Source of the DNA: Cytobacillus firmus
Lineage (GTDB): Bacteria > Bacillota > Bacilli > Bacillales > Cytobacillaceae
Direction: 5' to 3'
NCBI RefSeq assembly: GCF_023612095.1
Contig: NZ_CP086235.1
Location: forward strand, 2,429,501 to 2,493,500
Length of the DNA stretch: 64,000 nt
Shown piece after piece: positions 56,600 to 59,744 of the stretch; position 1 is the stretch's first letter; the number at the start of each line of letters is the position of its first letter. The notes beneath the pieces are model-generated. The model had not been told where the DNA came from. It did no database searches and saw only the letters and a program-made list of their open reading frames with translations. The translations under genes and the position numbers were made by a program.

Positions 56600-58261
56600 A
56601 TGAAAGCGGAAACAAAAAGAGAAATTAAAAATTATCAAGGCAGTGAGCTCCATGCAAAGGGCTGGATTCAGGAAGCGGCACTCCGCATGCTTATGAATAA
56701 CTTAGACAAAGAGGTTGCAGAGATTCCGGAGGAGCTGGTTGTTTACGGCGGGATTGGAAAGGCTGCCCGGAATTGGGATTGCTATGATGCGATTGTAAAA
56801 ACCCTGCATGAATTAGAAGACGATGAAACACTACTTGTTCAATCCGGAAAACCGGTTGCAGTATTTAAATCACATAAAGATGCACCAAAGGTATTGATCG
56901 CCAACTCGAATCTGGTGCCGGCCTGGGCAAACTGGGATACCTTCCATGAGCTTGATAAGAAAGGCCTGATGATGTATGGCCAAATGACAGCCGGAAGCTG
57001 GATTTACATCGGCAGCCAGGGAATCGTCCAAGGAACTTACGAAACATTTGCAGAGCTTGGCAGACAGCATTTCTCCGGCTCACTGAAACAGACGATTACG
57101 TTAACAGCAGGCCTTGGCGGAATGGGTGGCGCTCAGCCGCTTGCCGTAACCATGAATGATGGTGTCTGCATTGCCATTGATGTGGATGAACACCGCATTG
57201 ACCGCAGGCTTGAAACGAAATATCTGGATACAAAGGTTTATTCCATTGAAGAAGCTATTAAACTGGCAAAAGAGGCAAAACAGGAAGGACGTCCGCTTTC
57301 TATCGGTCTATTAGGCAATGCAGCTGAAATTTTACCAAAAATGCTTGAAATGAATTTCATCCCGGATGTCCTGACTGACCAGACTTCCGCGCATGATCCT
57401 TTAAATGGCTATGTCCCGATTGGCTATTCTTTAGAGGAAGCAGCTGTTCTGCGAAAGGAAGATGCTGCTGAATACGTCCAGAAATCAAAAGCAAGCATGG
57501 CTGTCCATGTTAAGGCAATGCTGGACATGCAAAAGAAGGGCGCAGTTACATTTGATTACGGAAACAATATCCGTCAGGTTGCAAAAGATGAGGGTGTCGA
57601 GAATGCGTTTGATTTCCCTGGATTCGTGCCTGCCTACATCCGTCCGTTGTTCTGTGAAGGGAAAGGGCCTTTCCGCTGGGTAGCATTATCAGGAGATCCG
57701 GAAGATATCTATAAAACAGATGAAGTGATCATGCGCGAATTTGCGGATAATGAACACCTTTGCAAATGGATCAAGATGGCACAGGAGAAAATTCAGTTCC
57801 AGGGGCTGCCTTCAAGAATTTGCTGGCTTGGTTATGGAGAGCGCGCAAGATTCGGAAAAATCATCAATGATATGGTTGCCAGCGGGGAACTAAAAGCACC
57901 GATTGTTATCGGGCGTGATCATCTGGATTCCGGTTCAGTTGCATCTCCAAACCGCGAGACAGAAGCCATGAAGGACGGCAGTGATGCAGTGGCAGACTGG
58001 CCAATCCTGAATGCTCTGATAAATGCGGTCGGCGGAGCAAGCTGGGTTTCCGTCCACCATGGAGGCGGCGTAGGAATGGGCTACTCTCTTCATGCAGGAA
58101 TGGTAATCGTTGCGGATGGCACGAAGGAAGCGGAACAGCGCCTTGAACGCGTCCTTACATCAGATCCTGGAATGGGAATCGTACGCCATGTAGATGCAGG
58201 CTATGATCTTGCTATCAAAACAGCAAAAGAAAAAGGCGTAAACATTCCAATGATGAAATAA
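56600..58261 (+). CDS. hutU: Urocanate hydratase
   Basis: Converts urocanate to imidazolone propionate (second step of histidine degradation). 553 residues, normal for urocanase. Conserved segments: [79 protein letters not shown], and the active-site Cys in [32 protein letters not shown] precedes the ATG. The upstream region is AT-rich without a recognised operator. hutH, normally paired with hutU, is absent from the window. Confidence 0.97.
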
Positions 58262-58279
58262 AGATTTCCTTTTATGAAC

Positions 58280-58378
58280 TTTGCAAATAGAAACGAAAAA
58301 TTTGCAAATAAACCATGCTAATTTGCAAATAGACCAGTCAATTCTGCAAATAAAACCCTTAAACTTGCAAATAACCAT
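58280..58378. repeat. Five direct TTTGCAAATA repeats with exact 21-bp phasing
   Basis: The G of GCAAATA falls at 58283, 58304, 58325, 58346 and 58367: four identical 21-bp steps. Core word (T/C)TGCAAATA(A/G/C); the 11 bp between cores vary. 21 bp equals two helical turns, so all cores face the same side of the DNA. It begins about 20 bp after the hutU stop, before the hut hairpin and hutI. On either strand 21 bp also equals seven codons. Confidence 0.9.
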
Positions 58379-58393
58379 GAATATATTCAATGA

Positions 58394-58442
58394 GGAAGCC
58401 CTCCAATCCGTAATTTTCTGCGGATTGGAACTTCCATTTTTT
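58394..58442 (+). terminator. Hairpin with T-run between hutU and hutI
   Basis: GGAAG(CCC)TCCAATCCG pairs with CGGATTGGA(A)CTTCC, followed by ATTTTTT, then the hutI ribosome binding site. It would terminate hutU transcripts unless hut genes use an antitermination step. Confidence 0.75.
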
Positions 58443-58457
58443 AAGGAGGAGCACAAA

Positions 58458-59744
58458 ATGCACTCAAAACCTATTTTTATCAAACATGCAAATCAGATGA
58501 TCACCTTAAAGGGCGGCTCCAAACAGCCCCTCACCAAAGAAAAAATGAGCGAGCTTCACATCATTGAAGACGGAGCAGTATGGATTGAAGAGGACAGAAT
58601 TAAATCAGCAGGGACCACAGCGGAACTCCAAGCTGAATATCAAAGCCGGCTTCAGGAAGCTGAAATCATTGATGCGACAGGAAAAATCCTCCTTCCAGGG
58701 CTTGTTGATCCGCATACACACCTCGTATATGCAGGCAGCAGGGAAGAGGAGTTCAATATGCGCCTGAACGGGGCGACGTATATGGAAATTATGAACAATG
58801 GCGGGGGCATTCATGCTACCACTTCAATGACCAGAAACGCATCTGAAGAGGAATTGGTAGATGCGAGCCTTGTCCGTCTTGATCGCTTTCTTAAACACGG
58901 AGTAACCACGATAGAGGCAAAAAGCGGATATGGACTGGATTGGGAAACAGAGCGAAAACAGCTGACAGCAGCCCGTAAAGCGGATGAACTGCATCCGGTG
59001 GAGGTTGTCCGCACCTTTATGGGAGCACATGCAGTTCCTGCTGAATACAAAGAGAATCCAGATGCCTTTATAGATTTAGTTATTGAAGAAATGCTTCCGA
59101 AAGTCGCGGAAGAAAAGCTCGCCGAATTCAATGATATTTTCTGCGAAAGAGGGGTATTCACACCGGAGCAGTCCAGAAAACTTCTTGAAGCAGGGAAGAA
59201 GCATGGCCTTATTCCTAAGATCCATGCCGACGAAATCGAACCCTATGAGGGGGCCGAGCTTGCTGCAGAAGTTGGTGCCATCTCTGCGGATCACTTGCTC
59301 AGAGCATCTGATAAGGGCATGGAAATGATGGCTGAAAAGGGAGTAATCGGCGTTCTTCTTCCAGGCACAGCATTCTTCCTGATGGCTGAAGCAGCCAGAG
59401 GCCGCCGCATGATTGATAAGGGTGTTCCAGTTGCATTATCAACCGATTGCAACCCCGGCTCTTCGCCAACCTGCTCCATGCCATTTATGATGAATCTTGC
59501 ATGCATGCACATGGGACTTACACCTGCAGAAGCGATTGCCGCCGCTACCATTAATGCAGCACATGCGATCAATCGGGCAGAAGAAGTGGGAAGCATAGAA
59601 CCCGGCAAAAAGGCTGATTTGCTTCTACTCAATGTGCCGAACTATATGCAAATGCAGTATCACTACGGCATGAACCACACAGACACAGTGATTAAAAATG
59701 GGGAAGTGGTCGTTAAAGGAGGAAGCTTATGCTACCAACAATAA
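58458..59744 (+). CDS. hutI: Imidazolonepropionase
   Basis: Third step of histidine degradation: hydrolyses imidazolone propionate to formiminoglutamate. 428 residues, amidohydrolase family. Metal ligands: HxH in LVDPHTHLVYAGSREEEF, later His in EVVRTFMGAHAV, His in KIHADEIEPY, and the catalytic Asp in STDCNPGSSPT. Start ATG 58458 has AAGGAGGAGCACAAA; the frame stays open upstream through the repeat array, but that would add an implausible 59-residue repetitive tail. Overlaps hutG by 16 bp. Confidence 0.96.
   Translation: MHSKPIFIKHANQMITLKGGSKQPLTKEKMSELHIIEDGAVWIEEDRIKSAGTTAELQAEYQSRLQEAEIIDATGKILLPGLVDPHTHLVYAGSREEEFNMRLNGATYMEIMNNGGGIHATTSMTRNASEEELVDASLVRLDRFLKHGVTTIEAKSGYGLDWETERKQLTAARKADELHPVEVVRTFMGAHAVPAEYKENPDAFIDLVIEEMLPKVAEEKLAEFNDIFCERGVFTPEQSRKLLEAGKKHGLIPKIHADEIEPYEGAELAAEVGAISADHLLRASDKGMEMMAEKGVIGVLLPGTAFFLMAEAARGRRMIDKGVPVALSTDCNPGSSPTCSMPFMMNLACMHMGLTPAEAIAAATINAAHAINRAEEVGSIEPGKKADLLLLNVPNYMQMQYHYGMNHTDTVIKNGEVVVKGGSLCYQQ

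What the first reader, a model, noticed from the sequence alone, without database searches (positions are those of the whole stretch)
58280..58378. Exactly 21-bp-phased array of five TTTGCAAATA words between hutU and hutI
Five cores recur with identical 21-bp steps while the intervening bases vary, so selection is on the core and on helical phasing rather than simple duplication. Two full turns per unit would put five bound proteins on one DNA face. It lies in an operon gap that also holds a terminator. It is neither a CRISPR array (spacers too short) nor a known hut operator such as the HutP region.
Basis: seen in the sequence. Interest (0 to 1): 0.8.

Follow-up and report, generated by a model that had tools for sequence, protein, structure and literature searches.

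The report
Phased 21-base repeat array, genome-wide family
A short DNA word repeated every 21 bases between two histidine-breakdown genes is one of about fifteen such arrays in this soil bacterium; it belongs to a published but unexplained class of bacterial repeats, and comparison with a close relative shows that evolution keeps the word while the bases between drift freely.

Summary
The array is real: five cores at exact 21-bp steps between hutU and hutI. It is not a hut element. The same unit, RAAYY-TGCAAATAGA plus about six free bases, forms about 15 arrays in this genome (Cytobacillus firmus group), and paired units occur in 25 of 36 same-genus genomes (own included). An unbiased own-genome scan gives steps of 21 (63 of 86) and 20 (15), never 22. 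Between this genome and close relative G005, in the seven of fifteen arrays that align well, the core differs at 3% of sites and the middle of the unit at 24%, equal to four-fold sites of hutI (24%): the core is conserved, the middle near neutral. At the hut locus one intermediate clade does not show this contrast. Arrays tend to point the same way as neighbour genes (24 against 7 independent tandem gaps). TCGCGG arrays in 41 of 397 same-order genomes share the orientation bias. The class, 20-21-nt tandem repeats of constant length and variable sequence, is in print (Subirana and Messeguer 2021), function unknown. Best explanation: head-to-tail sites for an oligomerising DNA-binding protein near gene ends; the protein is unknown and RNA-level action is not excluded. 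Verdict: new member of a known kind, with new comparative evidence.

The parts
58270..58281 (+). Leader half-unit (TTTTATGAACTT) before the first core
   Evidence: Read; TATGAACTT, TATAAACTT or TGTGAACTT stands before the first core in most of the aligned hut gaps
58280..58289 (+). Core 1, TTTGCAAATA
   Evidence: exact
58301..58310 (+). Core 2, TTTGCAAATA
   Evidence: exact
58322..58331 (+). Core 3, TTTGCAAATA
   Evidence: exact
58343..58352 (+). Core 4, TCTGCAAATA
   Evidence: one change
58364..58373 (+). Core 5, CTTGCAAATA
   Evidence: one change
58394..58442 (+). Hairpin (58394-58435) plus T run (58437-58442), terminator-like, inside the hutU-hutI gap and downstream of the array
   Evidence: Inner stem; named stem paired in 95.9% of cells over 20 relatives
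56600..58261 (+). hutU, urocanate hydratase, upstream neighbour
   Evidence: NCBIfam TIGR01228, 1009 bits, over cut-off
58458..59744 (+). hutI, imidazolonepropionase, downstream neighbour (ribosome site AAGGAGG at 58443-58449)
   Evidence: NCBIfam TIGR01224, 502 bits, over cut-off

Best explanation
The array is one member of a dispersed cis-element family: head-to-tail binding sites, one per two helical turns, for a sequence-specific DNA-binding protein that contacts its neighbours along one face of the DNA. Each site is about 15 bp (RAAYY-TGCAAATAGA) followed by about six free bases. The arrays sit in intergenic DNA, mostly just after the 3' end of a gene and in the same direction. Shown: the family, the unit, core conservation against near-neutral middle bases, the step rule, a co-orientation bias. 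Inferred: that the ligand is a protein, that it binds DNA and not RNA, and that it oligomerises. The likely role (insulating or structuring DNA at ends of transcription units, as has been proposed for REP/BIME elements) is a guess by analogy. In hut the array is upstream of a conserved hairpin, so there it lies in the hutU-hutI transcript.
For: Own genome: 63 pairs at 21 bp, 0 in reversed control; with the gap left free, steps cluster at 20-21 with none at 22-38. Seven G000-G005 orthologous arrays: core 12/401 (3%), left flank 30/197 (15%), middle 55/229 (24%); four-fold sites of hutI 47/194 (24%). In the five most distant hut relatives: middle 0.54-0.67, four-fold 0.56-0.65, core 0.21-0.32. 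Co-orientation: tandem gaps 58 same, 12 opposite in 99 arrays; 24 against 7 after collapsing arrays that share a flanking gene, p 0.0017. TCGCGG arrays: 10 against 1. Not coding: 25 of 86 arrays keep frame. A/T-rich patches alternate with a 10.5-bp harmonic stronger than the 21-bp one.
Against: No ligand was found. At the hut locus the clade G027, G017, G021, G009, G020, G018, G032 shows no contrast between core (0.14-0.26) and middle (0.12-0.25), and G025 has 6/50 core changes. Alignment favours matching cores. RNA action is not excluded: the hut array as RNA folds better than shuffles (z -2.72), arrays fold with mean z -1.45 sense and -2.58 antisense. Steps of 20 without 22 fit simple rotational phasing poorly. 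A terminator between stop and array (46 of 58 tandem co-oriented arrays) is not clearly above array-free tandem gaps (9 of 16), so position says little. Predicted curvature is only slightly above shuffles (0.921 against 0.952, wedge values recalled).
Confidence: 0.5

Rival explanations
1. RNA-level element: the array acts in the transcript (of hutU-hutI here, of read-through RNA elsewhere), bound by an RNA-binding protein or ribonuclease, or as a source of small RNA, as Subirana and Messeguer discuss.
For: Co-orientation with neighbour genes; the hut array is upstream of the conserved hairpin and so in the transcript; the hut array folds better than shuffles (z -2.72; whole gap z -3.77).
Against: 52 of 77 arrays behind a co-oriented gene lie beyond a predicted terminator. 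Pairing between neighbouring cores is not favoured: TT, which it would need, precedes 121 of 698 exact cores, and in relatives with a GCGAATA core the core is no longer a palindrome. No array matched an Rfam family over its gathering score in nine loci.
Confidence: 0.2
2. Neutral or selfish satellite: arrays arise by replication slippage or insertion in permissive gaps and drift; core conservation reflects the growth mechanism.
For: Unit duplications in G008 and higher-order repeats in G006, G007, G008, G014; unit number varies between G000 and G005 at several loci; no theme among neighbour genes.
Against: Interiors differ between units while cores match, and orthologous arrays keep cores while middles drift, which slippage or conversion would not do. 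All ten loci with both flanks held carry the array in both species. Orientation bias.
Confidence: 0.2
3. hut-specific operator or attenuator (HutP-like) between hutU and hutI.
For: A conserved hairpin with a T run just before the hutI ribosome site in 20 of 20 aligned relatives.
Against: The same unit occurs at 14 other places in the genome beside unrelated genes; the hairpin persists where the array is deleted (G026).
Confidence: 0.05

Closest known systems
20-21-nt constant-length tandem repeats of Bacillus (Subirana and Messeguer 2021, PMC8161180; parts 1-4 of 5 read, tables by passage)
   Same: 20-21-nt unit, non-coding, several families per genome, a short core kept in all units of a species (TCGCGG in B. 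weihaiensis), patchy across species; a protein polymerising on DNA or small RNA suggested there.
   Different: The main text holds no 'firmus' and no GCAAATA; it reports no sequence conservation across species, whereas here the cores TGCAAATAGA, GCGAATAAA and TCGCGGATAAA share, by eye, GCRRATA; ortholog rates and orientation were not found in the parts read.
REP/BIME elements of enterobacteria (search listing only; binding of gyrase and others recalled)
   Same: Dispersed, intergenic, often near 3' ends, in arrays.
   Different: REPs are palindromic and alternate in orientation; here units are direct and not palindromic in general.
TAACTGA direct repeats of Beggiatoaceae (start of abstract only)
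   Same: Short conserved word repeated in intergenic arrays, role unknown, post-transcriptional role proposed.
   Different: Other word and other bacteria.
CRISPR arrays (recalled)
   Same: Constant part plus variable part.
   Different: Unit of 20-21 bp with about six free bases; no cas-like family among 30 neighbour proteins scanned.

Membership tests
20-21-nt constant-length tandem repeats (PMC8161180) | At least four repeats within 800 nt | tested here: met
   Five cores in 94 bp
20-21-nt constant-length tandem repeats (PMC8161180) | At least 60% of repeats of one length, plus or minus 1 | tested here: met
   All four steps 21 bp; own genome 82 of 108 steps 21 and 21 of 108 steps 20
20-21-nt constant-length tandem repeats (PMC8161180) | Not coding | tested here: met
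   25 of 86 arrays with four or more exact cores keep frame; array lies between hutU and hutI
20-21-nt constant-length tandem repeats (PMC8161180) | Short core shared by many arrays of one genome | tested here: met
   About 15 arrays
20-21-nt constant-length tandem repeats (PMC8161180) | Sequence specific to a species, none shared widely | tested here: inconclusive
   TGCAAATA core in 25 of 36 genus genomes; a related GCRRATA pattern in other cores is seen by eye only
CRISPR array | Long repeats and spacers, cas genes nearby | tested here: not met
   Unit 21 bp; no cas-like family in 30 neighbour proteins
HutP or other hut operator | Confined to hut genes | tested here: not met
   14 other loci
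REP/BIME | Palindromic units in alternating orientation | tested here: not met
   All units of the arrays printed run head to tail
REP/BIME | Binding by gyrase, IHF or Pol I | not testable with these tools
   Needs binding assay
Rfam RNA family | Match over gathering score | tested here: not met
   Nine array loci, four matches at E up to 1, none over gathering; one sub-threshold match overlaps an array in L041. The window itself was not scanned; L220, the hut locus of G005, was

The most novel reading that the evidence does not exclude
A Bacillales-wide DNA-organising system: a conserved protein family, its specificity drifting from lineage to lineage, binds head-to-tail GCRRATA-type sites every 20-21 bp in arrays that run with transcription, a Gram-positive counterpart to BIMEs. 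The upper limit at 21 bp would be the reach between neighbouring protein subunits.
Probability: 0.25. Interest if true: 0.8.

Novelty: new member of a known kind. Interest (0 to 1): 0.5.

Why it matters
These repeats have been catalogued without a function. The rates measured here say that the core is kept while the rest of the unit drifts at about the neutral rate, at least between close species, so something reads it. That makes the open question testable: the array is a ready bait, and the 20-but-not-22 rule and the orientation bias are constraints any candidate must meet.

Tried and rejected
Coding repeat (7 codons per 21 bp): rejected, most arrays break frame. RNA hairpins between neighbouring cores: not favoured. 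Static curvature: weak. Position behind terminators as a rule: weak after the control. Replication-origin clustering: arrays of G000 lie 166-451 kb on one side of dnaA, 386-828 kb on the other and within about 120 kb of the opposite point; G007 shows similar places in the 100 of 149 pairs listed, but the loci are orthologous, so this is one observation and not a test. Rfam: nothing over threshold. Papers: TGCAAATAG with Bacillus and repeat gave two papers, unrelated by title and abstract; 'Cytobacillus firmus' with 'tandem repeats' none; '21-bp tandem repeat' with Bacillus and intergenic none; a search with terminator and Bacillales terms none. The 2020 J. Bacteriol. paper of the same authors is not held, and supplementary tables were not open to me, so the motif may be listed there.

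Rows dropped: from the set, 23 loci (22 by source or look of the repeat, and L124, named Pseudomonas) before counting; arrays without two credible flanking ORFs were dropped uncounted; six more loci (L191, L201, L207, L208, L210, L212, not Bacillaceae or unknown) were found later and removed, 105 to 99. Searches used the set before that removal. One search left out five of 30 TCGCGG loci (L231, L232, L234, L238, L245) that looked like coding or simple repeats. One search summed seven of 15 arrays: three aligned below 0.6 identity (core 1/50, 6/85, 3/68), four lacked both flanks among held loci, one gave an odd gap. Flaw: the pattern allowed steps of 19-20 only, so its zero for G093 and the step counts for G004, G010 and G011 say nothing about 21; the seeds were likewise limited to 20-21 or 21, so step spectra from those loci are biased and one search is the unbiased one.

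Full report
What is there. The window's array is five cores at 58280-58373 with exact 21-bp steps, between hutU and hutI. The genome holds about 15 such arrays.

The unit. Over 82 own-genome 21-bp units the profile is TGCAAATAGA, then about six nearly free positions, then R A A/T Y Y before the next core. With the gap left free, the 86 TGCAAATA pairs of the genome have steps 21 (63), 20 (15), 19 (2), 18 (1), 39-40 (4) and 10 (1). Allowing one change per core, 108 steps are 21 (82), 20 (21), 19 (4) and 18 (1). Over 99 arrays from fetched loci exact-core neighbours give 21 (360), 20 (98), 19 (21), 18 (9), 22 (4), besides multiples, but those loci were fetched with 20-21-bp seeds.

Distribution. 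Paired units occur in 25 of 36 same-genus genomes, own included, some with one pair only; triple units in 23 of 193 family genomes, of which G171 also hits the reversed control. Named hits include Cytobacillus, Mesobacillus maritimus, Gottfriedia, Fictibacillus, Piscibacillus and Metabacillus; hits in other phyla, where read, look like simple repeats. A GCGAATAR core forms pairs in 11 of 36 same-genus genomes, among them G004, G010 and G011, which lack TGCAAATA pairs; the reversed control hits two genomes once each. The published TCGCGG core of B. weihaiensis is found at 20-21-bp steps in 41 of 397 same-order genomes; the reversed control also hits 18 by my count of the table, so some of the 41, above all in family f47, may not be above background. 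By eye TGCAAATAGA, GCGAATAAA and TCGCGGATAAA share GCRRATA.

Selection. In seven of 15 arrays that align between G000 and G005 the core differs at 12/401 sites, the five bases before it at 30/197, the middle at 55/229. Four-fold sites of hutI differ at 47/194. At the hut locus over 20 genomes the array is recognisable in 19 and deleted in G026. In the five most distant (G023, G016, G028, G031, G015) the middle changes at the four-fold rate and the core at about half of it or less; in the seven intermediate ones core and middle change alike, below the four-fold rate. So the contrast is strong between close species and not uniform further out, where cores have shifted to forms such as AGCAAAGAAA. 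Five more distant relatives whose gap I read have a 25-45-nt gap and no array.

Context. Neighbour genes share no theme. By my reading, of the own genome's 15 arrays seven lie in tandem gaps with both genes in the array's direction, six between convergent genes, two between divergent ones, none in an opposed tandem gap. Over 99 arrays: 58 same, 12 opposed, 19 convergent, 10 divergent; collapsed by shared flanking gene, 24, 7, 10 and 5 of 46. TCGCGG arrays: 10, 1, 9 and 3 of 23. Genes were called as longest ORFs. A predicted terminator stands between stop codon and array in 52 of 77 arrays behind a co-oriented gene (46 of 58 tandem), but 9 of 16 array-free tandem gaps have one too. In hut the order is reversed: array first, then a hairpin kept in 20 of 20 relatives, its named stem paired in 95.9% of cells; its covariation does not clearly exceed shuffles (40 of 500 reach the score).

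Mechanism. The likeliest reading is a row of protein-binding sites on DNA, one per two turns. For it: a conserved 15-bp motif, near-neutral middle bases, two A/T-rich patches per unit with a dominant 10.5-bp harmonic, and an upper step limit of 21 that suggests contact between neighbours. Against, or open: no ligand; the hut array folds as RNA better than shuffles; antisense arrays fold better still. I hold DNA binding at 0.5, RNA action at 0.2, neutral satellite at 0.2.

Known or new. The class is published with the same two ideas of mechanism (PMC8161180). In the searches named in Tried and rejected I found no paper on this core. New here are the ortholog rates, the orientation bias, the step asymmetry in an unbiased scan and the likeness of cores across lineages. 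I therefore file it as a new member of a known kind, interest 0.5.

Noticed in passing
window 58394-58449: A hairpin with a T run directly before the hutI ribosome site is kept in 20 of 20 relatives with the long gap, also where the array is lost (G026). It suggests attenuation or partial termination between hutU and hutI.
   Followed up: partly
window 58160-58483 (-) and 58281-59744 (+): The array opens spurious reading frames: a 107-aa minus-strand ORF with ICK every seven residues, and a TTG-started extension of hutI with LQI every seven.
   Followed up: partly
genome G093 (genus g16): 40 triple-unit matches in one g16 genome and none in the six other g16 genomes searched: horizontal gain or a lineage-specific burst.
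   Followed up: no
genomes of family f47 and others: The reversed control of the TCGCGG pattern also hits 18 genomes by my count, some with many places: other periodic arrays with a different core may exist there.
   Followed up: no
L074 (G014): G014 arrays alternate two unit types at strict 20-bp steps, so the growing unit is a dimer.
   Followed up: no
L141 (Mesobacillus maritimus): One array passes from GTGAATAGA-type units to TGCAAATAGA units, two core types in one row.
   Followed up: no
G000 chromosome: Arrays lie near the origin on both arms and near the opposite point, with wide empty arcs between; not tested against gene-order conservation.
   Followed up: partly
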